Below, in pieces: positions 1 through 12,674 of a stretch of DNA of 51,060 nt. The position numbers were made by a program, and so were the translations under genes. The notes below the pieces were generated by a model that worked only from the letters and a program-made list of their open reading frames with translations, ran no database searches and was not told the DNA's origin. This DNA comes from Acidimicrobiaceae bacterium (GTDB lineage: Bacteria > Actinomycetota > Acidimicrobiia > Acidimicrobiales > RAAP-2). The number at the start of each line of letters is the position of its first letter. Within the stretch, counting starts at the first letter, position 1. Where the stretch lies: positions 40,474 to 91,533 of the forward strand of contig PKYQ01000027.1 of NCBI GenBank assembly GCA_003133685.1. The letters run 5' to 3'.

Positions 1-384
1 ATCGCGTTCAACGTGACCTCGCTTGACGTCATCCACAGTTTCTGGGCGTACCAGCTCGAAGTGAAGGCCGACGCCAATCCCATGGAGAACAACGTCGCGT
101 TCACCAAGACCGAGCAACTCGGGAGTTTCGAAGTTCGTTGCAGTGAGCTGTGCGGCATCTGGCACGGCGCGATGTTCAATTCGGGCAACGTGGTCTCGGA
201 ATCGGCCTTCATGGCGTGGGCGACATCGACCGAAGCCAAGAACGCCGCGAACACGAAGGACCTCCCGCCGTTCGCGTGGACCTACGTACCGGACGCGAAC
301 GGTGCCGCGGGCGGCTATTACCCCGACGGCAACGTGACCCCCTACAGCGCTGTCGAGATCTACGGATCGAAGCAACCCTCATGA
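1..384 (+). CDS. ctaC: Cytochrome c oxidase subunit II, C-terminal part (5' end outside window)
   Basis: The reading frame is open from base 1, so the N-terminal membrane hairpin lies upstream. What remains is the extracytoplasmic cupredoxin domain that takes electrons from cytochrome c into the binuclear CuA centre. All CuA ligands are visible: the His in DVIHSFW, then CSELCGIWHGAM, which supplies two Cys, the bridging Glu carbonyl, His and Met. The Glu between the two Cys is also a ligand of the Mg site shared with subunit I. Subunit I follows 55 bp downstream on the same strand. No C-terminal cytochrome c domain is fused, so an aa3-like rather than caa3 subunit II is likely. Confidence 0.93.
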   Translation: MAFNVTSLDVIHSFWAYQLEVKADANPMENNVAFTKTEQLGSFEVRCSELCGIWHGAMFNSGNVVSESAFMAWATSTEAKNAANTKDLPPFAWTYVPDANGAAGGYYPDGNVTPYSAVEIYGSKQPS

Positions 385-439: not shown

Positions 440-2401
440 ATGACCATCAGCGCTGCAGGACCGGCGGACGTTAAGGCAGTACCCCCAGCGCCCGCGGATG
501 CACCGAAAACTACGGGTAATGGGTGGTTAAGTCAACACGTCGGCACCGCAATCGTCTGTGGATTCCTGGGCTACATCTTGGGACACTGGCTCGGAAACTA
601 TCTCGGGAGCGCGTACCCCTACATCGCCAATAGTGGGCAGAACTCGCTCGCCGTTCTCCTGGCGTTGATGTTCATGGTCCTGGGTTGGCTGCTTGGGATC
701 GGCGCGCTGAACTACCCGATCCTCAAGTTGACGGGTCGAGACGCCAAGCCTGAAGTGGAGTACACCGGATGGTCGAGGTACTTCCGCTACAACCTTGACC
801 ACAAGATCGTTGGCATTCAGTACGTCGTCGCTGTGCTGATGTTCTTCTTCACGGGCGGACTTCTGGCGATGGCCATCCGCACCGAACTCCTGAGCCCGAC
901 GGTCCACGTCTTCAGTGCCGACACGTACATCAAGATCGTCAGTGAGCACGGCACGATCATGATGATGATGGCGTCGTCGATAGTCGTCGGGCCACTCGGC
1001 AACTACTTCGTACCACTGATGATCGGTGCTCGTCGCATGGCCTACCCCCGCATCGAGGCCTTCAGCCTGTGGACCTTCGTGGCGGGCTACTTCGTGATCT
1101 TCTCGGCGTTGTTCTTCGGAGGGTTCCCGACCGGCTGGACGGGCTACGCGCCGCTCCAGACCCAGGCTGGCCCGGGCATGGTGTCCTATCTCTTCGGCTT
1201 CGCCGTGATCAGCATCGGAATGATAGCGGCCGGTTTCAACTTGGCCGCAACGATCATCAACTACCGCGCGCCGGGCATGACCTGGAGTCGAGTACCGGTG
1301 TTCGTCTGGTCGATCATCGCGACCGCCGCGCTGTTGACCCTGGCCTCGCCCGTGCTGCTGGCGGCTGGCCTCTTCGGACTGCTCGACAAAACGGCGCAGA
1401 CCGCGTTCTACGTCACCGAGCACGGCGGGAGTTCGTACCTATGGGAGAACCTGTTCTGGTTCTTCGGGCACCCCGAGGTGTACATCATGGCGCTCCCAGG
1501 CTTCGGCATCGTAGGCGAGATAATCCCAGTGTTCTGCCGAAAGCCGCTCTTCGCGTACCGAATCGCCGCGGCGGGAATGATCGGCGTGGCCTTGCTGTCT
1601 TTCTTCGTGTGGCAGCACCACCTCTTCCAGAGCGGTATCAACCCGGACATGCGGCCGCTGTTCATGTTGACGACGGAGCTCATCTCGATTCCGACCGGGT
1701 TCATCTTCTTGGTGGGAATGGGCACGTTGTATAAAGCCAAGATCAGATATGAAGTGCCGATGCTCTTCTGCATGGCCGTGTACTTCAACTTCCTCATCGG
1801 TGGTATCTCGGGCGTGTTCCTTTCCGACGTACCGGTGAACGTGACGGTGCACGGTGGATTCTTCGTCCTCTCGCACTTCCACTACACGATCATGGGTGGT
1901 CTCATCTTCGCGTTCTTCGCCGGTCTGTACTTCTGGCTGCCGAAGATGACCGGTCGCACGATGAACAAGAAGCTCGGACTGTGGCACTTCTGGACGATGT
2001 TCGTCTTCTTCAACCTGACGTTCTTCCCGATGTTCGTCATCGGGCTGTTGGGCCAACCACGCCGAGTCTTCACGTACGCGAGGGACCTGCAGACCTTGAA
2101 CGACTTTTCCTCGATCGCGGCGTTCTGCCTCGGCGCGTCGTTCCTGATCTTCGTGGCCAACCTGATGTGGTCTCAGTTCATCGCCCCGCAAAAGTCTCCG
2201 GCCAATCCTTGGGACTCACTCGGCCTCGAATGGCAGACCGCGACGCCGATTCCGTCCCACAACTTCGATCGGATTCCGGTCATCATGACCGACCCGTATC
2301 ACTACAGCGAAGTCGGCGCACCAGCGCTGGTCGACTTCGGGGATGGTTCACCGGCGCACGCCAGTAGTTCCGTCGCCTCCAGTACTGACCCGGATCAATA
2401 G
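440..2401 (+). CDS. ctaD: Cytochrome c oxidase subunit I, divergent haem-copper oxidase
   Basis: This 653-residue protein is the catalytic subunit that reduces O2 and pumps protons. Haem and copper ligands are present: His170 (low-spin haem), His344 and Tyr348 in GHPEVY, His393-His394 (CuB), His479 and His481 in SHFHY. Glu346 in HPEVY marks an A-type enzyme. Several usually conserved positions differ. The D-channel Asp of GAPDMAFPR aligns with Arg199 (GARRMAYPR). The K-channel Lys of PTGIKVF aligns with Ile422 (PTGFIF). The Mg-site HD pair is HG (471-472). About 110 residues, including two likely extra helices, precede the canonical first helix (RYNLDHKIVG). It sits between subunits II and III. 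Confidence 0.95.
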   Translation: MTISAAGPADVKAVPPAPADAPKTTGNGWLSQHVGTAIVCGFLGYILGHWLGNYLGSAYPYIANSGQNSLAVLLALMFMVLGWLLGIGALNYPILKLTGRDAKPEVEYTGWSRYFRYNLDHKIVGIQYVVAVLMFFFTGGLLAMAIRTELLSPTVHVFSADTYIKIVSEHGTIMMMMASSIVVGPLGNYFVPLMIGARRMAYPRIEAFSLWTFVAGYFVIFSALFFGGFPTGWTGYAPLQTQAGPGMVSYLFGFAVISIGMIAAGFNLAATIINYRAPGMTWSRVPVFVWSIIATAALLTLASPVLLAAGLFGLLDKTAQTAFYVTEHGGSSYLWENLFWFFGHPEVYIMALPGFGIVGEIIPVFCRKPLFAYRIAAAGMIGVALLSFFVWQHHLFQSGINPDMRPLFMLTTELISIPTGFIFLVGMGTLYKAKIRYEVPMLFCMAVYFNFLIGGISGVFLSDVPVNVTVHGGFFVLSHFHYTIMGGLIFAFFAGLYFWLPKMTGRTMNKKLGLWHFWTMFVFFNLTFFPMFVIGLLGQPRRVFTYARDLQTLNDFSSIAAFCLGASFLIFVANLMWSQFIAPQKSPANPWDSLGLEWQTATPIPSHNFDRIPVIMTDPYHYSEVGAPALVDFGDGSPAHASSSVASSTDPDQ

Positions 2402-2419: not shown

Positions 2420-3076
2420 ATGACGGACATGATCAAGAGCTCACCCAAGATGAGCGACACTCCGGAAGAGCGGGAGTTCGAACTACGTGCGCACATCGGC
2501 GCGATATGGAGCGGTGGCCGACTGTTCATCGGCATTTACACCTTCTTCCTCGCGTCGCTCGCCTTCAGTTACTTCTATCTGCGCTCGAGCAACAACGGGC
2601 TGCTGTGGCGACCGGATCACGTGACGGCGCCTACGGCCTACGGATGGACCATCTACACCTTGACCCTTCTCGCCGCCCTCATGGCCATCTTCGGTCAGTC
2701 GCGACTGCGAAAGGGAAGCGTGTCGGATTGGCAGACGGCCGTCTGGGTGGGCGTGGCGGCTTCGCTGCTCGCCTTGTTCCTGCAGATCTGGGAGTTCGTC
2801 GCGGTGCCCTTTTACCCCGGCTCGAGTGGCTACGCCTCGACGTTCATTGGCTACGCGGTCATGAACGTCATGACGATCTTCATCGTCGCGTACTGGTTGG
2901 AAACGACCGTCGCGCGTTCAATTCGATTGAATAAGGAACTGGACGGCGTCTCACCCCAACTGTCGATGCACCCTTCCGCGCAGTCATTTCGCGCGAACGT
3001 GGCGTCGATGACGTACTTCTTGGGATTCGTAGCGCTCGCCAGCACGCTGTTGTTCGCAATGTTCTACCTGCTGTAG
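2420..3076 (+). CDS. ctaE: Cytochrome c oxidase subunit III
   Basis: This 218-residue membrane protein is about the size of the short five-helix subunit III of bacterial oxidases. Hydrophobic segments lie near residues 35-55, 75-95, 105-125, 140-160 and 195-217. The family-typical stretch WEFVAVPFYPGSSGY appears before helix 4. Subunit III stabilises subunit I and helps proton uptake; it carries no redox centre. It starts 18 bp after subunit I, so the two are almost certainly co-transcribed. Confidence 0.9.
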   Translation: MTDMIKSSPKMSDTPEEREFELRAHIGAIWSGGRLFIGIYTFFLASLAFSYFYLRSSNNGLLWRPDHVTAPTAYGWTIYTLTLLAALMAIFGQSRLRKGSVSDWQTAVWVGVAASLLALFLQIWEFVAVPFYPGSSGYASTFIGYAVMNVMTIFIVAYWLETTVARSIRLNKELDGVSPQLSMHPSAQSFRANVASMTYFLGFVALASTLLFAMFYLL

Positions 3077-3146: not shown

Positions 3147-3260
3147 ATGCCAGGCGTAGACAGTTTCATCGGCCCTCAGGTCGAGACGATGGTGATTCTC
3201 TTGGGCACGCTGTTCGCCGTCGCCATCTGGGGATTCTTCCAGCGTCATCATTCGGAGTGA
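3147..3260 (+). CDS. 37-residue single-helix membrane protein in the oxidase operon
   Basis: A short frame begins at an ATG (two in-frame GTG codons lie just upstream) and encodes a soluble N-terminus, one hydrophobic helix (about residues 13-31) and a polar tail ending QRHHSE. Its TGA overlaps the GTG of the CtaG-like gene as GTGA, which indicates translational coupling. By position it resembles the very small subunit IV-type proteins that accompany some bacterial oxidases, but there is too little sequence to assign a family. A function as a structural oxidase subunit or assembly helper is inference. Confidence 0.6.
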   Translation: MPGVDSFIGPQVETMVILLGTLFAVAIWGFFQRHHSE

Positions 3261-4078
3261 GCACTGAGCCGCCTCGCCGGCCGTCCTCACCACGTCGCGT
3301 TCTCTTCCACGATCTCCTCGCCGGCACGGCTCTGGTCCTCTGGGTGCTCGTATTGACGCCTCCCGTGCTCGCGCTGAGCGGCGAGTACGAGTTCGTGCAA
3401 TCCACACAGTTCTGTCTCTTCGCGATCGTGATCCCTTCCCTGCTCGTCGTGAGCGGACCGTGGCGATGGTTCGACCTGGCCTCGCTGGACGAACCCTTCG
3501 TGGACGACGACGGTCGACCCATCAACGCGACGCCCCCTCGCCCCCTGGACCGCTGGGTGCGGGGTCGCGCGTCGCGTAAGGGCTATCGTCGCGCCGTCGC
3601 GCTCCTGCTCATCTTCATGGCCCAGACGATCCTCTGGCGCTCTGCGCCCGTCGTGGACGCGCTGATTCGCCACCCGTGGCTCTCGATCGTGGAGTCGATC
3701 ACGCTCGTGATCGGCGGCGCGTTCTTCTGGCTCGAGTTGGTCGACTCGGCGCCCTTTCATCCGACGACGGCGCGCCCGTACCGCATCGGGGTCGCCGCGA
3801 TCGCCATGTGGACGGTGTGGGTGATCGCCTATCTCATGGCCATGGCCCAGAACACGTGGTACACGGGCTTTCGCCACGTGTCGGGGCGACTCTTCTCCCT
3901 GGCGGTGGACCAACAGGTCACGACGGCGTTGATGTGGTTCCTCACGGCCTGTGCCTTCCTCCCGATCATCTTCTCGAACCTCAACCGCTGGCTGCAGTCC
4001 GAGGACGACCCCGACGAAGAGTTGTACCAACTCGTTCGACGTGACCCCTCGCGCGGGTTCTTCGGGACAAACCCCTAG
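3257..4078 (+). CDS. CtaG-like (caa3_CtaG family) oxidase assembly membrane protein
   Basis: This 273-residue protein has about six or seven hydrophobic segments. It carries landmarks of the caa3-type CtaG family: a VQSTQFCLFAIVIPSLLVVSGP segment matching the family's (Q)HxxL...PPLLVxGAP helix, an HPWLSIVESITLVIGGAFFW segment, and a late DQQVTTALMWF helix. CtaG proteins act in the membrane in cytochrome oxidase biogenesis, probably copper delivery. The family's His in the first motif (QH) is replaced (TQF), so metal handling may differ from the second copy at 7692-8633. It is the last gene of the oxidase operon. Confidence 0.75.
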   Translation: MSTEPPRRPSSPRRVLFHDLLAGTALVLWVLVLTPPVLALSGEYEFVQSTQFCLFAIVIPSLLVVSGPWRWFDLASLDEPFVDDDGRPINATPPRPLDRWVRGRASRKGYRRAVALLLIFMAQTILWRSAPVVDALIRHPWLSIVESITLVIGGAFFWLELVDSAPFHPTTARPYRIGVAAIAMWTVWVIAYLMAMAQNTWYTGFRHVSGRLFSLAVDQQVTTALMWFLTACAFLPIIFSNLNRWLQSEDDPDEELYQLVRRDPSRGFFGTNP

Positions 4079-4669: not shown

Positions 4670-5347
4670 TTAGGTCCCGCTCAGGTGCGGGAGCGACGGG
4701 ATCTTGAGCGCGTACAGTGGCCGCCCGAGCACACTGTGCGCCTGGGATACGTCGTTCAACGCCTTGATGCGCTCGCTCGCGAGTTGTTGTTCTTGAATTC
4801 CAAGGTTGCGGATCGTCTTCGCGTCGCCGGGATGGTTGAACAGATATTGGATATCGCGAATCGACGCCAAGGCGTAATCGGTGATCCAACGCTCGACGAC
4901 GCTCAGCATTCGGTCGATGTGTTTGCCCGCTTTTGTGTCGTCGACCTGGAGGTTGTTCGTGAGGTCGTAGACCGGCTCGCTCGCGAACGAGCACGCCGTC
5001 TCATCATCGTTGAGCAGTTTCGGAATCAGGGCCAAGTCCGACGGGGTCAGCTTGCCGCTGACGTCCTGGTCATAGAAGTTGAACGACTCCTTTACCGCTA
5101 ACGCGCATTTGGCGAGGTCGGCGTTGATCTCCTTGATCGAGGCATTCTGTGAGGCCGCGTCCTGGGCTTTGGTGATGGGTCGTGGCAGGTCGATCACGAC
5201 CGAAATGGCGACGATGACGACCAATGACAGCGTGGTGAGGACCCACGGTCGTCGATACCAGACGGCTTTGGTGATGCCCAACGACGAGGTCGGCATCGAC
5301 GCCGGGTCGAAGGGGACGTTTTCGAAGCCCGAGAGGTCGTCAGTCAC
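4670..5347 (-). CDS. Uncharacterised membrane-anchored protein coupled to Sco1
   Basis: This 225-residue protein has a short cytoplasmic N-terminus, one transmembrane helix at about residues 35-53 and a mostly helical, charged extracytoplasmic domain with two Cys (in AKCALAV and ETACSF). No family is recognised. Its GTG start overlaps the TGA of the Sco1 gene (GTGA), so the pair is translationally coupled and the protein probably acts with Sco1 in oxidase assembly or in a related extracytoplasmic process. That role is inferred from position alone. Confidence 0.75.
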   Translation of the reverse strand: MTDDLSGFENVPFDPASMPTSSLGITKAVWYRRPWVLTTLSLVVIVAISVVIDLPRPITKAQDAASQNASIKEINADLAKCALAVKESFNFYDQDVSGKLTPSDLALIPKLLNDDETACSFASEPVYDLTNNLQVDDTKAGKHIDRMLSVVERWITDYALASIRDIQYLFNHPGDAKTIRNLGIQEQQLASERIKALNDVSQAHSVLGRPLYALKIPSLPHLSGT

Positions 5348-6225
5348 TGGACAAGACTATCGGCGGTCTCGGCGATCGCTCGGGCGTAGGTTCTCAGGCT
5401 TGGGAGGTCGAGCGAGTACAGACCCGTCGTGCTTTCGGTGCCGAAGGGCTTCGCGTACGACACGAGATTGCCGTTGGGTCCAATGAAGTACAACACGTTG
5501 TTATGCGAGACCTCGCTCGCCTTGGCGCCGACCTCGACGCGCACCCCGTAGGCCGACCAGACGCGATTAAGGGAGTCGACAGTGCCCGACAACAACGTGA
5601 CCGAAGGGTCATTACTCAGGCCCGGCACGGTGAGCGCACGACTTTGCGCAGAGATCTTGATCGCGTTGGGATCCGTGTTGACGATCACGAAGTGGACCGT
5701 GTCACCCGTTGCTCCAAGCTCGTGGGACGCGAGGGCAATCTCTTCGCCGAGCACCGGACAGATGTCGTTGCAGATCGAGTCATAGAACGCGAGGACGATG
5801 ACCTGACCCTTGTGGGAAGCGAGTCGCCATTTGCGTCCGCGCTGGGTGCGCAGCGTGAACTTGGGGGCGTTTTCGTCACCGATGTCCTTCAGCCCGATGA
5901 ACACCTGGAGTGAGATCAAAGAGGGAAGATGGGGGTTCGTCGTCGGTGTGCCCTTGAGCACGGGGGTGGTCGTCGCGGGCGACGATGCCTTCCCGTATGT
6001 CTCGAAGAAGTGCTGGGCCACTTCACCTCCGAGGCCGAGGACCAGGACCGCGACGATGGTCCAGGCGATGAACTTGCGCGGCACCGTCACTCGCCGGGTC
6101 TGCAGAGCACCGTGTCGATCCTTCGGTGCATTCGCGGCGGCGAAGATTGCGGCGCGCTGTGCCTCGTCTAGCTCGCTGGGTTGTCGCGAGGTCTCCTCAT
6201 TGCCGTTCGTCATCTCGCTGCCCAT
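5344..6225 (-). CDS. SCO1/SenC family copper chaperone, membrane anchored
   Basis: This 293-residue protein has a cytoplasmic tail, one helix (about 53-70) and an extracytoplasmic thioredoxin-fold domain. The copper-binding CxxxC is present as ICNDIC (Cys152, Cys156), and His241 in SHNNVLYFIGP supplies the third ligand. SCO proteins deliver copper to, or reduce, the CuA site of oxidase subunit II, which is encoded at the window's left edge. An alternative ATG lies 12 bp downstream (6213). It forms a two-gene unit with the membrane protein at 4670-5347. Confidence 0.9.
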   Translation of the reverse strand: MGSEMTNGNEETSRQPSELDEAQRAAIFAAANAPKDRHGALQTRRVTVPRKFIAWTIVAVLVLGLGGEVAQHFFETYGKASSPATTTPVLKGTPTTNPHLPSLISLQVFIGLKDIGDENAPKFTLRTQRGRKWRLASHKGQVIVLAFYDSICNDICPVLGEEIALASHELGATGDTVHFVIVNTDPNAIKISAQSRALTVPGLSNDPSVTLLSGTVDSLNRVWSAYGVRVEVGAKASEVSHNNVLYFIGPNGNLVSYAKPFGTESTTGLYSLDLPSLRTYARAIAETADSLVQ

Positions 6226-6338: not shown

Positions 6339-6749
6339 GTGAGCGACGCCGAAAAGGTGCCCGATGTGCAGCCGGCGAAGGGAGCCCAGTCCCCGTTATT
6401 GGGCGCGGCGGCGATGAAGACCCACCTCACGTTGGTGGTCGGCCTCGCGCTGTGCGTCGCCGCGTTCTGGTTCGAACTCGGCCGCGCCGAGCGAGGTAAT
6501 GAACTTAGTTGGGCCTACGTCTTTGAATGGCCGTTGCTCGCGATCTTCGCCGTATATATGTGGTGGAAATTGCTCCACCCCGGCTTCACGATCCGACCGG
6601 CACGAGAGAAGCCGACCGTCGCTCCCGAATACGAGGAGATGCTCCAGGCATGGCAGGGCGAGGTGCGCAAACTCGAGATGAACCGCAGGGCCGAAGAAGC
6701 CAGCGGGGCGCAGCACACCGGCGACGCCGCGACGCTCGACGATGAGTGA
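6339..6749 (+). CDS. Uncharacterised two-helix membrane protein
   Basis: This 136-residue protein begins at a GTG. It has a hydrophilic N-terminus, two hydrophobic helices (about 29-47 and 60-76) and a charged C-terminal coiled-coil-like tail with a PEYEEMLQAWQGEVRKLE segment. No family assignment is made. It overlaps the next gene by 8 bp (ATG inside its last codons), so both are likely expressed together. Its place between Sco1 and a CtaG gene suggests a link with respiratory assembly, but nothing in the protein proves this. Confidence 0.75.
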   Translation: MSDAEKVPDVQPAKGAQSPLLGAAAMKTHLTLVVGLALCVAAFWFELGRAERGNELSWAYVFEWPLLAIFAVYMWWKLLHPGFTIRPAREKPTVAPEYEEMLQAWQGEVRKLEMNRRAEEASGAQHTGDAATLDDE

Positions 6750-7665
6750 GTCGTCACCGGCCGAGGTCGTGCGCTCGTGGCCGTCGGGTTCGCGCGTCGC
6801 GGTAGTCACGGCGCTCGCAGCGCTCGCTTCGGTCGTGGCCAACGCTGCGCTCGTGTGGCTGGCGACGGCCTTCGACCCCTCCCTCCAGCATTACTCGCAT
6901 TTTCGTCTCGCGGACTACGGCACGCTCAGCATCGTCGGGGTGATCTGCGCCGGCGTGGCGTGGTACCTCGCCACGCGAAACCTCGCCGCACCCCGACACA
7001 CATTTTTCCGAGTGGCCGTTGCCGCGATGTTGGTCCTGTGGGTGCCCGACGTCTGGCTCCTCATCAAGCACGAACCGACGCGCGCCGTGATCTTTCTCAT
7101 CGTGATGCACCTCGCTGTCGCCCTGATCACTTACAACCTGTTGGTGTTCGCCGCGCCAGTAGGAGTGCGCGACGCGACGCTTGTCACCGCGCCCGTGTCT
7201 CGATCGCACGACGTTCTCGAAGAGGACTCGACGCCCGAACGGGTGCCGCGCGCCGTGTGGCTGGTCTTGATGATCGCGGTCGCCGTTGAGTTCTTCGCCG
7301 GACTAATCGGCATGTTGTACGTCCCGTTCAATCGACCCGACGGGTGGCTCGCCCATCGAGGTGAGGCGCTCTATCTCGTCCACGCGGTGCTCGGGGGACT
7401 ACTGGGTGTCGCGGCCGTCGTCGTCGTCCTCCACGTCTCGCGTCGAACGCAGGTTCATCGCGTGGACCGGGTCGCGGCCGTGAGTGGGCTCTGCGGCATG
7501 CTCATCGGTGCGCTCGGTGGGGCGCTGTGCGTCAGCCATCCTCTGCGACTCCTGGGGATGGCGTTGATGTTCGTCGGCGTGTCCGTGGCATTCTTCGGCT
7601 ACCTCATTCCGATGATCGACGACACGCACCCCATTACGTCCGAACCGACCTCCGCCGCGACGTAG
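6742..7665 (+). CDS. Uncharacterised polytopic membrane protein with two four-helix halves
   Basis: This 307-residue protein appears to be two membrane halves joined by a hydrophilic linker (about residues 145-170). The first half has four helices and resembles DUF6069-type small membrane proteins (N-terminal ANAALVWLATAF, then LADYGTLSIVGVI). The second half has about four helices (AVWLVLMIAVAVEFFAGLIG, HAVLGGLLGVAAVVVV, and two more). It has no obvious catalytic motif or metal site. It overlaps the preceding gene by 8 bp. The family guess for the first half is tentative. Confidence 0.7.
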   Translation: MSESSPAEVVRSWPSGSRVAVVTALAALASVVANAALVWLATAFDPSLQHYSHFRLADYGTLSIVGVICAGVAWYLATRNLAAPRHTFFRVAVAAMLVLWVPDVWLLIKHEPTRAVIFLIVMHLAVALITYNLLVFAAPVGVRDATLVTAPVSRSHDVLEEDSTPERVPRAVWLVLMIAVAVEFFAGLIGMLYVPFNRPDGWLAHRGEALYLVHAVLGGLLGVAAVVVVLHVSRRTQVHRVDRVAAVSGLCGMLIGALGGALCVSHPLRLLGMALMFVGVSVAFFGYLIPMIDDTHPITSEPTSAAT

Positions 7666-7691: not shown

Positions 7692-8633
7692 TTAGGTGAC
7701 AGTCTCGTCGCGCGCCAGAGCTCGGAATTCGTCAACGGTCATCGATCGACGTCCCCGAAGCACTTCGTCCATATCGCTCGAATTGGTGTCGTCGTGGGTC
7801 GTGAGCCGTAGCGCCATTACCAACGCGGGGAAACACCAGAAGTCGCCGCACACCCACAGGATCGCGGCGCCGATCTGTTGGTCCGCGAAGGGATTGAGCG
7901 TGGTGTGCGTCATCGAGGACATGTTGGCCAAATGGAGCATCGAATTGCCGATGTCGTAGAGCGATCCCGAGGCGAAGAAGCTCAGCGACATGGCGATGAT
8001 GGTCATGACGAGGTTCGTGAAGAGCAGGACGCCCACGCGCGCGAACGGCGACAGCGTCGGTCGCCACGGGCGCGACGGGATGAACTGCAACCAGAACAAG
8101 AGTCCCGAGACTAAGAAGCTGGGCAGCATCAAACCGACGTGAAGTTTGGGATTACCCATGACCGGGTTGAAGACGCTCGGCAACATCCACACGACCATGA
8201 CCGCGTTGAAGGCGATGATGGCGAAGAGCGGTGAGAACACGACCGCGCCAATCCTTCGAAGCAGTGGGCGCTCGGGTCGAAGGAACACCCGCCGAAGGAG
8301 TCGTCGACGCGTCGTGACCGGCACCGCGAAGACGAGTGGGATCGCGGGCGCCCCGGCAACGTAGAGCGCGGGTGCGGCGAGCATGACCGTGACGTGCTGG
8401 ATCATGTGGACCCAGAAGTACTCCATCGACCAGTACTGCAGCGGCGAGACGACGCTGAGCGTTGCGACCGCGATTCCGGCGTAGGCGAGCCACATACGGC
8501 GCCGTCGCGACCGGGCGTGGACGCGCGTCGAGCGGGCGTTCAGGACGCGAAGGCCCCTTTCGTGCACGGCGACAACCAGGAAGGCGACTACGGCGATCTC
8601 CGGATAGCCCCAGTGGTGCGTGAGATAATTCAC
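7692..8633 (-). CDS. ctaG: CtaG, caa3-type cytochrome c oxidase assembly factor
   Basis: This 313-residue polytopic protein has the full CtaG signature. A WVHMIQHVTVMLAAPALYVAGAP helix carries the His residues thought to bind copper, HVGLMLPSFLVSGLLFW follows, and a late FADQQIGAAILWVCGDFW segment is present. It acts in the membrane in oxidase maturation, probably inserting copper into subunit I. It is the more canonical of two CtaG-like genes here. It is transcribed toward the 6742-7665 gene and ends 26 bp from it. Confidence 0.88.
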   Translation of the reverse strand: MNYLTHHWGYPEIAVVAFLVVAVHERGLRVLNARSTRVHARSRRRRMWLAYAGIAVATLSVVSPLQYWSMEYFWVHMIQHVTVMLAAPALYVAGAPAIPLVFAVPVTTRRRLLRRVFLRPERPLLRRIGAVVFSPLFAIIAFNAVMVVWMLPSVFNPVMGNPKLHVGLMLPSFLVSGLLFWLQFIPSRPWRPTLSPFARVGVLLFTNLVMTIIAMSLSFFASGSLYDIGNSMLHLANMSSMTHTTLNPFADQQIGAAILWVCGDFWCFPALVMALRLTTHDDTNSSDMDEVLRGRRSMTVDEFRALARDETVT

Positions 8634-9163: not shown

Positions 9164-9443
9164 CTTCCAACGATAAACAAATGTGAGCGTTGTGAGAATA
9201 ATCACGACGCGTAACAGACTTGACGTACTCGTGACGGAGATCAGGACCGAGAAGAAACGGTAAATACGGCGTTGATCAGGTGACACTCAACAAAGGCGCG
9301 ACTAGATCGCGTGTGCAGGGGGGCGCTCTCGATCAAGAGGATTGAAGGGAGATTCTCGTCAGAACCTCCGTATGGGTCTTAGGTCCCTATTGGACCCTAT
9401 TTTTCACATGGGAGACTGCTCACAACATGAGTGGGGAGAGGTG
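9164..9443 (+). promoter_or_regulatory. Leader region between divergent lipoprotein and cytochrome b operons
   Basis: This 280-bp stretch has no convincing gene and should hold both divergent promoters. A TTGACG box lies near 9219. At 9382-9396 a GGTCC-CTATT-GGACC hairpin is followed by CTATTTTT, resembling a small terminator or attenuator. GGGTC at 9374-9378 could instead pair with GACCC at 9393-9397, so two mutually exclusive folds are possible. The 5-bp stems are weak, so this is a suggestion only. Confidence 0.3.
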
Positions 9444-9626
9444 ATGTCAAGTTTCGGATTGTTAGCCGCCATATGGCCGCTAACCACGCTTGGTCACTAC
9501 GTGCATTGGCACATCATCCAGATCAGTGTGGCCAACTTGTTGGTCATCATCTTGATGGTCGTGACGTTCATCGTTGCACTATTCGCACCGTTTCCAGGTC
9601 GACGCCGCCGGAAGGAAAAGCCATGA
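9444..9626 (+). CDS. 60-residue one-helix protein of the cytochrome b operon
   Basis: The start is the ATG at 9444 because GGGGAGAGG lies just upstream (9433-9441) and the longer frame from 9342 adds an implausible N-terminus. The protein has a short amphipathic N-terminus (GHYVHWHIIQIS), one strong transmembrane helix (about 25-46) and a basic tail (GRRRRKEK). Its TGA overlaps the ATG of the cytochrome b gene (ATGA). It is probably a small structural subunit of that complex; the family is not recognised. Confidence 0.7.
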   Translation: MSSFGLLAAIWPLTTLGHYVHWHIIQISVANLLVIILMVVTFIVALFAPFPGRRRRKEKP

Positions 9627-10249
9627 GCACCACGGAGATCGATCGCCAGTGGACAACCCGTCTGCGCCGACGCGTCGCCGGCAAACTCCCCCCGGAAAAG
9701 TTGCTGCCCGATACGCAACCGACGTACGTCGCTTCGTGGATCTACGTCTTCGGCGTCACGACGATGGCCGCCCTCGGCGTCGTCATCGTCTCGGGCTGTC
9801 TCCTGGCGCTACGCGGACCGCAATGGTGGCACACCTCTTCAGTCGGTCACTTCGTTAATTCGCTGCATCTTTGGAGCGTCGAGATCTTCTTCTTCGCCAT
9901 GGTCATTCATCTCTGGGGCAAGTACTTCATGGCCGCCTGGCGCGGGGGTCGAGCTCTCACGTGGATGACCGGCGTCTTCACATTTCTCGTTTCAATCGCG
10001 ACAGCGTTCACCGGTTACGTGAGCCAATCGAACTTCGACTCACAATGGATTTCGACCCAGGCGAAAGATGGCATCAACTCCACCGGCGCGGGTGCGTTTT
10101 GGAATGTCCTGAATACGGGACAGATGCTCATGTGGCACATCGTCTTGCTGCCCCTCGCTGCGGTCGTCTTGACGATGTTTCACGTCCTCCTCGTTCGCAT
10201 CAAGGGCGTCGTGCCGCCCTTTGAGAAGGACGCGGAGGTGGCGCAATGA
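9623..10249 (+). CDS. Cytochrome b (b6-type N-terminal domain, bis-haem)
   Basis: This 208-residue protein matches the four-helix haem-binding half of cytochrome b. The haem ligands are His82/His96 (14 apart) and His172/His187 (15 apart). The longer second spacing is characteristic of cytochrome b6 rather than mitochondrial-type cytochrome b. The GYVSQSNFDSQWI region follows the family's quinone-site loop. Function: quinol oxidation and transmembrane electron transfer. It overlaps both neighbours by ATGA junctions. No Rieske iron-sulfur protein or cytochrome c1/f gene is next to it. Confidence 0.88.
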   Translation: MSTTEIDRQWTTRLRRRVAGKLPPEKLLPDTQPTYVASWIYVFGVTTMAALGVVIVSGCLLALRGPQWWHTSSVGHFVNSLHLWSVEIFFFAMVIHLWGKYFMAAWRGGRALTWMTGVFTFLVSIATAFTGYVSQSNFDSQWISTQAKDGINSTGAGAFWNVLNTGQMLMWHIVLLPLAAVVLTMFHVLLVRIKGVVPPFEKDAEVAQ

Positions 10250-11254: not shown

Positions 11255-12442
11255 TCACACGTGTACACCGGAGAGCGCGAGCAGCAGGCCGACAAATCCG
11301 GCCAGGAGCAAGCACGCAACCACGCTTCGTCGAAAGACGAAGAGTAGGACCAGAGCTCCGGCGAGAATCGGGATCTGCCACAGGTGACTGAATGATCGTC
11401 CCAGGGGAATGGCCGATCCCGCGATTGCGCCAATGACCGCCGGTCCCGCTCCACGAAAAAACGACCGGACGGACTGGTTTTGGCGAATTCCGTCGAAGTG
11501 AGGTGCTCCCGCGAGAACAAAGAGGAACGACGGACTGAACACGACGAGCGCGGCGAGGAGTCCTCCCCCGATTCCTCCCGCGACGTACCCGACCGCGGCC
11601 ACCGTTTGCACGACCGGACCGGGGGTCAGTTGGCCGAGTGCCACCGCGCTGAGGAACTGCGTTCCGCTCATCCAGTGATACGTGCTCACGACGTCGTGTT
11701 GCATGAGCGGAACAATGACGAATCCCCCGCCATAGGAGAGGGCGCCCACCTTGAGCGCGACCCATCCGATCGCGCCGATGCCGCCAAAACCTCCAACGTG
11801 ACCTAGAGCCCAGGGAAATGTGACCCGAGTCGTTCCTGAAGGCTTTATGTTCTCGCGTCGTTGCGCCACGATCTCTATCAACCCGCACGCGACGAGCGCG
11901 AGAACCAGGTACGAGCCAGCGGTGGCGGCCGCCAAAGCGCCGACCACGACGTACGTCATCCATCGAATGCGCGCCACCCGTCGTTTGGCCGCGGCCCTTC
12001 GACTCGCGGGAACGAGGGTCCACGCCGCTTTCAGGGCTACGGCCGGTACCGCCGCGCCAGCGCCAGCTGCGGTTCCGAGAACCCACGCGGGCGCGTGGCG
12101 ATCAAGAACGAGGACCGAGAGCGCGAGGATGAGAATCAGCCCGGGCACGATGAAGCACACGCCGCCGATGATGGCGCCCATCGCACCTCGTAGCCGCCAG
12201 GCACAGAAGATCGCCAACTGGGTCGACGCGGGACCCGGGAGGAGGTTCGTGGCGGCCACCCCATCTTCGAACTCTCGTTCATCCATCCATTGGCGTTGCT
12301 CGACGCAGAGTCGTCGAAGCAAGGAGATGTGCGTGGGTGGACCTCCGAATCCGATGCAGCCCAAACGCGTCCACTCGCGCGCAATAGTTGAGAGCGAGAC
12401 GTGTGGTGCGGGAGTAGTGTCGTCGTTCATCGGACCACTCAT
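11255..12442 (-). CDS. chrA: ChrA-type chromate transporter (two-domain)
   Basis: This roughly 395-residue membrane protein has the duplicated CHR layout. The first half has GCIGFGGPPTHISLLR and NLLPGPASTQLAIF, and the second half has VGALSYGGGFVIVPLMQ and ALGQLTPGPVVQTVAAVGY. Two-domain CHR proteins export chromate by a proton- or sulfate-linked mechanism, although many homologues have untested substrates. The ATG at 12442 was chosen over an upstream TTG (12457); a further ATG exists at 12430. It converges with the cytochrome b operon, leaving 61 bp. Confidence 0.88.
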   Translation of the reverse strand: MSGPMNDDTTPAPHVSLSTIAREWTRLGCIGFGGPPTHISLLRRLCVEQRQWMDEREFEDGVAATNLLPGPASTQLAIFCAWRLRGAMGAIIGGVCFIVPGLILILALSVLVLDRHAPAWVLGTAAGAGAAVPAVALKAAWTLVPASRRAAAKRRVARIRWMTYVVVGALAAATAGSYLVLALVACGLIEIVAQRRENIKPSGTTRVTFPWALGHVGGFGGIGAIGWVALKVGALSYGGGFVIVPLMQHDVVSTYHWMSGTQFLSAVALGQLTPGPVVQTVAAVGYVAGGIGGGLLAALVVFSPSFLFVLAGAPHFDGIRQNQSVRSFFRGAGPAVIGAIAGSAIPLGRSFSHLWQIPILAGALVLLFVFRRSVVACLLLAGFVGLLLALSGVHV

Positions 12443-12674
12443 ACGACACTCTTGCAATGTCGCGCCGTGACCGATTCACTACTGTCGTGCACTGCCACAA
12501 TTCGAGAAGTATCTACACGCGACTCGATCGCATCGCTCGAGAACGTGACCAAGCTCACGGCACGTAGCCTAGGAATCTCGACGAAGTGTGCGCACCAACT
12601 CGTCGAATATTTCTCAGAGACACCACGGGTGCCAATGTCGCACACCGAAACTCAAGGGCCAAGCGTTCGTGACT
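12443..12674. other. Intergenic stretch between chrA and the M24 gene
   Basis: This interval of about 230 bp separates two genes on the minus strand. Short frames exist on both strands but none has a family resemblance or ribosome site. It probably holds the chrA promoter and the end of the M24/ABC transcript. I see no strong hairpin with a U-tract. Confidence 0.3.

What the first reader, a model, noticed from the sequence alone, without database searches (positions are those of the whole stretch)
440..2401. Oxidase subunit I lacks the usual D-channel and K-channel residues
The catalytic haem, CuB and HPEVY residues are all present. However, the D-channel Asp position is Arg199, the adjacent Asn position is Glu, the K-channel Lys position is Ile422 and the Mg-site Asp is Gly472. 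Similar losses are reported for some archaeal Fox-type oxidases of acidophiles. This enzyme may use other proton paths or pump poorly. It also has a two-helix N-terminal extension.
Basis: partly seen in the sequence, partly recalled or inferred. Interest (0 to 1): 0.6.

Follow-up and report, generated by a model that had tools for sequence, protein, structure and literature searches.

The report
Oxygen-reducing enzyme with rewired proton channels
A second cytochrome c oxidase, found in many relatives of acid-loving iron-oxidising actinobacteria, keeps its oxygen-reducing centre but has had both of its usual proton entry routes rewritten in a conserved way, so it can test how far those routes are needed.

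Summary
The 653-aa protein at 440-2401 is a haem-copper oxidase subunit I with its metal ligands, HPEVY and a CuA-bearing subunit II, but the D-channel Asp is Arg199, the D-channel Asn is Glu206, the K-channel Lys is Ile422 and the Mg-site Asp is Gly472. These are fixed in its clade: in 90 aligned rows the only Lys and Mg-Asp belong to one likely assembly chimera. "Lacks channels" is too simple. Among 100 sequences, nearly all actinobacterial, all 27 without the Lys (25 different) carry a Glu and a Ser higher on the same helix (Glu413, Ser416 here) and none of 73 with it does; the trees need two changes. The D-channel change is one event: Asp/Asn became Arg or Lys/Glu, moving the carboxylate inward. 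An N-terminal extension is known in other oxidases and is shared with relatives whose D-channel is normal. Kinship with archaeal Fox was not testable; the enzyme nests among actinobacterial oxidases, with a homologue in a genome that matches Acidimicrobium ferrooxidans in length. Most likely it is active, with remodelled proton input and altered, probably reduced, pumping. Pumping itself cannot be tested here.

The parts
1..384 (+). 3' part of the subunit II gene (coxB). The window begins just after a two-N scaffold gap inside the gene; its 5' part lies outside the window
   Evidence: COX2 PF00116; CuA ligands present; gap in L033
34..36 (+). first CuA histidine (VIHSFW)
   Evidence: sequence; H 87/87 rows (own protein counted twice)
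139..174 (+). CuA loop CSELCGIWHGAM, including the Mg-site Glu
   Evidence: C, E, C, H, M each 87/87 rows
440..2401 (+). subunit I gene (cox1), 653 aa, the finding
539..700 (+). two extra N-terminal helices, residues 34-56 and 69-87
   Evidence: predicted model; an extension of similar length in the D-normal sister group
1034..1036 (+). Arg199, in place of the D-channel Asp (Rs D132, Ms D115)
   Evidence: R 84, K 5, Q 1 of 90 rows
1055..1057 (+). Glu206, in place of the D-channel Asn (Rs N139)
   Evidence: E 90/90 rows; 3/3 in L129-L131
1220..1222 (+). Met261, in place of upper D-channel Ser (Rs S201)
   Evidence: M 90/90 rows
1475..1477 (+). Glu346, D-channel terminal Glu (Rs E286), kept
   Evidence: E 90/90 rows
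1613..1615 (+). Gln392 beside the CuB histidines, Ala in relatives
   Evidence: Q 89/89 rows and 3/3 in L129-L131; A in the other 32 rows of that table
1676..1678 (+). Glu413 on helix VIII (Rs M353)
   Evidence: E 89/89 rows; in 27 of 27 sequences without the K-channel Lys and 0 of 73 with it
1685..1687 (+). Ser416 on helix VIII (Rs A356)
   Evidence: same distribution as Glu413
1703..1705 (+). Ile422, in place of the K-channel Lys (Rs K362, Ms K340)
   Evidence: I 83, L 4, V 2, K 1 (chimera) of 90 rows
1853..1855 (+). Gly472, in place of the Mg-site Asp (Rs D412)
   Evidence: G 89 of 90 rows, D in the chimera
2420..3076 (+). subunit III-like membrane protein next to cox1
   Evidence: position and conservation; its only family hit is TatC, below that family's cut-off, so the name is inferred
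3257..4078 (+). CtaG-like copper assembly factor
   Evidence: PF09678, E 3e-20; found downstream of cox1 in most loci printed
5344..6225 (-). SCO1-like assembly protein
   Evidence: PF02630, E 2e-12; found downstream in most loci printed
7692..8633 (-). second CtaG-like protein
   Evidence: PF09678, E 1.5e-36

Best explanation
It is the catalytic subunit of a working CuA-type cytochrome oxidase, the second subunit I of its genome, whose two proton inlets were remodelled in steps. Step 1 (shared with wider relatives): the K-channel Lys was replaced by another residue, mostly hydrophobic, together with gain of a Glu and a Ser higher on helix VIII, which I infer take over part of its proton delivery. 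Step 2 (shared with the sister group): Mg-site Asp to Gly. Step 3 (this clade only): the D-channel mouth was recharged, Asp to Arg or Lys and Asn to Glu, with Met above, moving the acid group inward. O2 reduction is kept. I infer that protons still reach Glu346 through a D-like path led by Glu206, and that pumping is altered and probably lower than in the canonical oxidase. Shown: sequence, conservation, order of changes on the trees, gene neighbourhood. Inferred: activity, proton routes and pumping.
For: CuB and haem ligands, Tyr288 and Glu286 columns are invariant in 90 rows and the CuA ligands of subunit II in 87 of 87 rows. Low dN/dS argues for function. Heme A synthase homologues are in the genome. 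Exceptionless swap in the sample: 27 of 27 rows without Lys (25 different) have Glu and Ser, 0 of 73 with Lys do (duplicates seen); a minimum of 2 changes each for Lys loss, Glu gain and Ser gain on both trees. The K-channel Glu of subunit II is also mostly gone: Q 74, E 11, V 2 of 87 rows in this clade and 0 of 6 in the sister group, against 4 of 4 in canonical ones. The D-channel change and the Mg Asp-to-Gly change are one event each on both trees. E286, N207 and S142 of the D-path are kept in 90 of 90 rows, N121 in 87.
Against: No structure, activity or H+/e- value exists. The window's own subunit II keeps the K-channel Glu. Met261 and Ile257 may block the upper D-path. Only 2 independent pairs support the Lys/Glu-Ser swap, too few for a test (sign test p 0.5), and only Actinobacteriota plus one R. 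sphaeroides sequence were sampled. By ideal helix geometry Glu413 points about 180 degrees away from the Lys position and lies 13.5 A along the helix from it, so it is not a simple positional substitute.
Confidence: 0.6

Rival explanations
1. Non-pumping oxidase (overlaps with the best explanation in its claim of lower pumping): both inlets are closed to pumped protons and the enzyme only consumes chemical protons. This would be an adaptation to a large inward proton force and, in iron oxidisers, to a small redox span.
For: D-channel mouth is positive and the upper part hydrophobic. Titles of named relatives include palsa, bog and fen samples; the family is described as typical of acidic, metal-laden places (PMC4714123, passages); one homologue is in a genome matching the acidophile Acidimicrobium ferrooxidans in length. 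A decoupling D-path mutant structure (3ehb) is among the fold matches, seen as a title.
Against: The sister group in the same family keeps the D-channel Asp and Asn. No rusticyanin match in this genome, and a paper on mine-drainage genomes marks eight of its nine Acidimicrobiales genomes 'No' and one 'NA' for Fe(II) oxidation (PMC8357290, table passage), so an iron role is not shown. The redox-span argument is from general knowledge.
Confidence: 0.35
2. Some chemical protons come from the outer (acidic) side, by way of Glu413 and the subunit I/II interface, in the manner of cytochrome c-dependent nitric oxide reductase.
For: Glu413 lies near the middle of predicted helix 402-430, 13.5 A from the Lys position along the helix, on the outer side of it by the recalled direction of helix VIII. 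The Mg-site Asp is lost. PMC3084760 (passages) records that no channel from the cytoplasm was seen in that reductase and that it is non-electrogenic.
Against: Glu/Ser variants also occur in relatives with a normal D-channel and Mg-site Asp. No water path was modelled; that helix VIII contacts subunit II is recalled. The enzyme would save less energy.
Confidence: 0.15
3. A decaying or misassembled gene whose channel residues drifted.
For: One relative (L039) is a likely chimera, so assembly errors occur in such data.
Against: Glu206, Glu413 and Ser416 in 89 of 89 rows without the chimera, low dN/dS, conserved gene order, intact frame.
Confidence: 0.01
4. A bacterial member of the archaeal Fox oxidase group.
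Against: Nested inside actinobacterial oxidases; but no archaeal sequences were in the trees, so not excluded by direct test.
Confidence: 0.04

Closest known systems
aa3-type cytochrome c oxidase subunit I of Actinobacteria (M. smegmatis 6ADQ, 8OVC)
   Same: Fold, haem and CuB ligands, HPEVY, CuA subunit II; among the best sequence and fold matches, 40% identity in the fold alignment
   Different: Asp115->Arg, Asn122->Glu, Lys340->Ile, Asp390->Gly; two extra N-terminal helices; Glu413 and Ser416
Sister group (L035, L036, L040-L043, L136, L137 of the same family; L157 of another class)
   Same: Lys loss with Glu and Ser, Mg Asp->Gly; N-terminal extension in the first eight; a similar upstream cupredoxin-like gene in the six with flanks
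   Different: D-channel Asp and Asn intact; 40-44% identity
COX1 with two extra N-terminal helices ('2TM') described in PMC8239418
   Same: Extra helices; reported in lineages that include iron oxidisers
   Different: Their K and D residues were not available to me; that paper's Supplementary Figure 7 classes K-channel variants and was not seen
Laboratory channel mutants (R. sphaeroides D132A 3omi, K362M 3om3; P. denitrificans decoupled D-path mutant 3ehb), seen as titles
   Same: 3omi and 3om3 alter the same positions; 3ehb is, from recall, the Asn position
   Different: Here changed together, in nature, with partner changes. I recall that an Asn-to-Asp change at N139 decouples and that adding D132N restores pumping; no call shows this
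Archaeal FoxA
   Different: Not compared; no sequence available, and the main paper on it was not held

Membership tests
COX1 / haem-copper oxidase superfamily (PF00115) | Profile match over cut-off with haem, CuB and tyrosine ligands | tested here: met
   420.8 bits against cut-off 34.8; ligands invariant
Type A1 oxidase in the residue-based sense of PMC3084760 | D-channel residues (Pd Asp124, Asn199, Asn113, Asn131, Tyr35, Ser134, Ser193, Glu278) | tested here: not met
   Asp124, Asn131 and Ser193 replaced; Asn113, Asn199, Ser134 and Glu278 kept; Tyr35 not examined (P. denitrificans numbers matched to R. sphaeroides by the recalled offset of 8)
Type A1 oxidase in the residue-based sense of PMC3084760 | K-channel residues (Pd Lys354, Thr351, Ser291, Tyr280) | tested here: not met
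   Lys and Ser replaced; Thr and Tyr kept
Type A oxidases by descent | Groups with type A subunits I in a tree | tested here: inconclusive
   Nested among sequences with type A features, with supported forks (98-100% bootstrap at the three forks above the clade); no type B or C sequence was in the trees
CtaD equivalog TIGR02891 | Score over 670.75 bits | tested here: not met
   547 bits; the genome's canonical copy also falls just short, 655.2, so this says little
CuA cytochrome c oxidase | CuA ligands in subunit II | tested here: met
   H, C, E, C, H, M 87/87 rows
Archaeal Fox-type oxidase | Clusters with FoxA in a tree; fox gene cluster | not testable with these tools
   No archaeal sequences available to me
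Proton-pumping oxidase | Pumped protons per electron above zero | not testable with these tools
   Needs purified enzyme or cells

The most novel reading that the evidence does not exclude
A natural oxidase class in which both inside proton inlets were rebuilt: the K-path by a helix-VIII Glu/Ser system that arose twice with loss of the Lys, and the D-path by swapping an acidic mouth for a basic one and placing the acid seven residues inward. Proton entry then follows rules not seen in any studied oxidase, possibly drawing on the acidic outside.
Probability: 0.3. Interest if true: 0.78.

Novelty: new variant of a known kind. Interest (0 to 1): 0.6.

Why it matters
The D- and K-channels are the textbook proton inlets of respiratory oxygen reduction. 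A conserved, natural enzyme with both rewritten, beside relatives at intermediate steps and a canonical copy in the same genome, lets the need for each residue be tested in evolution rather than only by mutants. A homologue lies in a genome whose length equals that of the cultivable Acidimicrobium ferrooxidans, so the question can be put to cells.

Tried and rejected
Gene decay: rejected by conservation, dN/dS and gene order.

Misalignment: rejected; no gaps across the channel residues and agreement with the named channel residues of M. smegmatis.

A true reversion in one relative (L039, with Lys and Asp): set aside as a likely chimera that switches source at GHPEVY. It stays in the counts and is left out.

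Rusticyanin-based iron oxidation in this genome: no match. Cyc2-type or other iron-oxidation genes were not searched.

Plasmid-borne close relatives: none; 974 records, all under 60% identity.

Independent-contrast test of the Lys versus Glu/Ser swap: only 2 pairs, no power.

Paper searches (open-licence papers only, so 'not in print' is not claimed): FoxA with heme-copper, 3 papers; heme-copper with D-channel, K-channel and acidophil, 1; HCO with channel terms, 20; N139D with D132N, 0; Acidithiobacillus with channel terms, 38, of which 15 listed; Acidimicrobi with oxidase, iron oxidation and heme-copper, 1; D-channel with decoupled and residue names, 0; Acidimicrobi with terminal oxidase and ferrous iron, 5; K-channel with helix VIII and glutamate, 3. 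PMC8079940 and PMC6431628 were searched for residue or channel terms without a useful passage. In PMC8239418 the one match to 'Acidimicrob' that I was shown is in its table of heme A synthases. Supplements could not be read.

Full report
What is there. The ORF at 440-2401 encodes a 653-aa COX1 (PF00115, E 8e-126). Upstream is the end of a CuA subunit II gene; the window begins just after a two-N gap within it. Downstream lie a subunit III-like protein, CtaG- and SCO1-like assembly proteins and a second CtaG. The genome (2.5 Mb, 33 contigs) has a second COX1 with canonical Asp, Asn and Lys (L001), a cytochrome b with c-haem domains beside it on contig 20, which I take for a bc-type complex, one cytochrome bd and heme A synthase homologues. 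Named relatives (the best 80 of 167 listed) are mostly Acidimicrobiaceae or other actinobacterial MAGs; titles include palsa, bog and fen; other bin series I take, from recall, to be mine-drainage samples; a few records carry other phylum names. The family is described as typical of acidic, metal-laden places (PMC4714123, passages).

The observation. The Asp and Lys columns are the ones called Asp115 and Lys340 in M. smegmatis (PMC11189923, passages). More of both channels is changed: Ser201 to Met, Ser200 to Gly, Ser197 to Ile (D), Ser299 to Gly and Ser365 to Val (K; R. sphaeroides numbering; K-channel members as listed in PMC9687966, passages). M. smegmatis itself has Gly, Gly and Thr at 197, 200 and 201, so those three alone need not close the path. 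Kept are Asn121, Asn207, Ser142, Glu286, Thr359, Tyr288, His411 and both arginines.

Spread. In the same family, 163 of 172 genomes match the protein at E <= 0.001; by my count of the listing, 84 places in 83 genomes are 64-100% identical (the chimera G081 at 64% among them), and every further match listed is at 45% or less (the listing was cut at its weak end). In an even sample of 296 genomes of the phylum, 148 match at E <= 1e-100; outside the family the listing shows three over 50%: G251 of the same order (59%), and G378 (55%) and G373 (54%) of other classes. In L129, L130, L131 (G251, G378, G373) the Asp column is K, R, R, the Asn column E in all, the Lys column L, T, V and the Mg Asp column G in all.

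Conservation. In 90 rows (the window protein counted twice) the Asp column is R 84, K 5, Q 1; the Asn column E 90; the Lys column I 83, L 4, V 2, K 1; the Mg Asp column G 89, D 1. The single Lys and Asp are in L039, a likely chimera. Without it, Glu413, Ser416, Glu206 and Gln392 are each 89 of 89.

A coordinated swap. I gathered 100 sequences: 5 of this clade from the first set, 3 distant members, the sister group, canonical and other copies, the two references, and one sequence from each of 55 further fetched places, most of them taken down the phylum listing in order of score (60 fetched loci gave a match; 5 were dropped as repeats). Two pairs of rows in the sister group are identical. All 27 rows without the K-channel Lys (25 different) have Glu at the column of Rs M353 and Ser at A356; all 73 with the Lys have neither. 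On both trees, Lys loss, Glu gain and Ser gain each need at least two changes; the Mg Asp-to-Gly change and the D-channel change need one each (the trait columns were left out of the trees). Only two independent pairs exist, so this is a strong pattern without a significance test. The K-channel Glu of subunit II is Q 74, E 11, V 2 of 87 rows in this clade, absent in 6 of 6 of the sister group, present in 4 of 4 canonical ones; the window's own copy has Glu.

Order of events. Canonical; then Lys lost with Glu and Ser gained; then Mg Asp to Gly, seen in this clade and its sister group; then in this clade Asp/Asn to Arg or Lys/Glu, with Met at Ser201. The sister group keeps the D-channel Asp and Asn and has an extension of similar length.

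The extension. Two long helices precede the core (model). PMC8239418 (sections 11 and 12 read, first part of section 9, passages) reports COX1 with two extra N-terminal helices in various lineages, including iron oxidisers. It maps variants of the K- and D-channels on archaeal COX1 and counts seven losses of the K-channel under an archaeal-origin hypothesis that it rejects. The extension therefore does not explain the channel changes. An older survey found only 4 of 1216 sequences without the channel residues of their type, all grouped with type B (PMC3084760, section 12).

How it may work. Catalysis and electron entry are intact by sequence. For the proton side I infer, not show, that Glu206 serves as an inner acid group of a D-like path whose outer mouth is now basic. 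From recall, N139D in R. sphaeroides decouples pumping and adding D132N restores it; the library search found no paper on this, but a decoupled D-path mutant structure is in the fold list by title (3ehb). Glu413 lies on helix VIII nine residues before Ile422, about 180 degrees round and 13.5 A along by ideal helix geometry, towards the outer side by the recalled direction of that helix. It is thus not a direct stand-in for the Lys, which leaves room for a path along another face.

Iron. Whole cells of A. ferrooxidans reduced with iron at pH 1.5 show a-type cytochromes (PMC5143472, passages). The genome taken to be that species also has a canonical subunit I (L200); which of the two gives that signal is unknown. 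The window's genome has no rusticyanin match, and a study of mine-drainage genomes marks eight of nine Acidimicrobiales genomes 'No' and one 'NA' for Fe(II) oxidation (PMC8357290, table passage). A link to iron is open.

Against my reading. No structure or pumping data; the upper D-path is more hydrophobic; only two origins of the swap; archaeal oxidases and all but one proteobacterial oxidase were left uncompared; the variant may already be classed in the unseen Supplementary Figure 7 of PMC8239418.

Noticed in passing
L033:8772-9449 + (G000:C12:39245-39922, just upstream of the window): A 225-aa membrane-anchored, cupredoxin-like protein lies upstream of cox1 in 78 of 78 loci of this clade with at least 2.6 kb upstream (some genomes appear as two loci; L039 left out), and in 6 of 6 sister-group loci, but not in the 5 canonical loci or the 2 other Glu/Ser loci looked at. 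In 81 rows it has invariant His, C-x3-C and Met, a little like a CuA loop but with no conserved second His, and no significant Pfam, NCBIfam or PDB match. It may be the dedicated electron donor or a copper chaperone.
   Followed up: partly
L033:6689-8425 +: A 578-aa protein with a long membrane part fused to a C-terminal SCO1 domain, found upstream of the cluster in many of the loci printed.
   Followed up: no
L039 (G081:C127): Subunit I switches from about 90% identity with this clade to an R. sphaeroides-like sequence at the GHPEVY motif: a likely assembly chimera that would mislead a residue survey.
   Followed up: yes
window 9431-10249 +: A 272-aa cytochrome b-like protein (PF13631, E 2.4e-12) 7 kb downstream of the oxidase, apart from the cytochrome b on contig 20.
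   Followed up: no
window 1613-1615 (Gln392): Gln replaces the Ala just before the two CuB histidines in 89 of 89 rows of this clade and in L129-L131, and in none of the 32 other rows of that table; it may tune CuB or hold a water there.
   Followed up: no
L132, L133, L135: Relatives in which the Glu of HPEVY is Ala (A2-like) also carry the Lys-to-Glu/Ser swap, so the swap is not tied to one type of D-channel end.
   Followed up: no
window 6339-7665 +: Two overlapping small, probably membrane, proteins (136 and 307 aa), conserved near the cluster in close relatives; the larger has a sub-threshold DUF6069 match.
   Followed up: no
window 11255-12457 -: Two-domain chromate transporter (PF02417, E 1.5e-72).
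   Followed up: no
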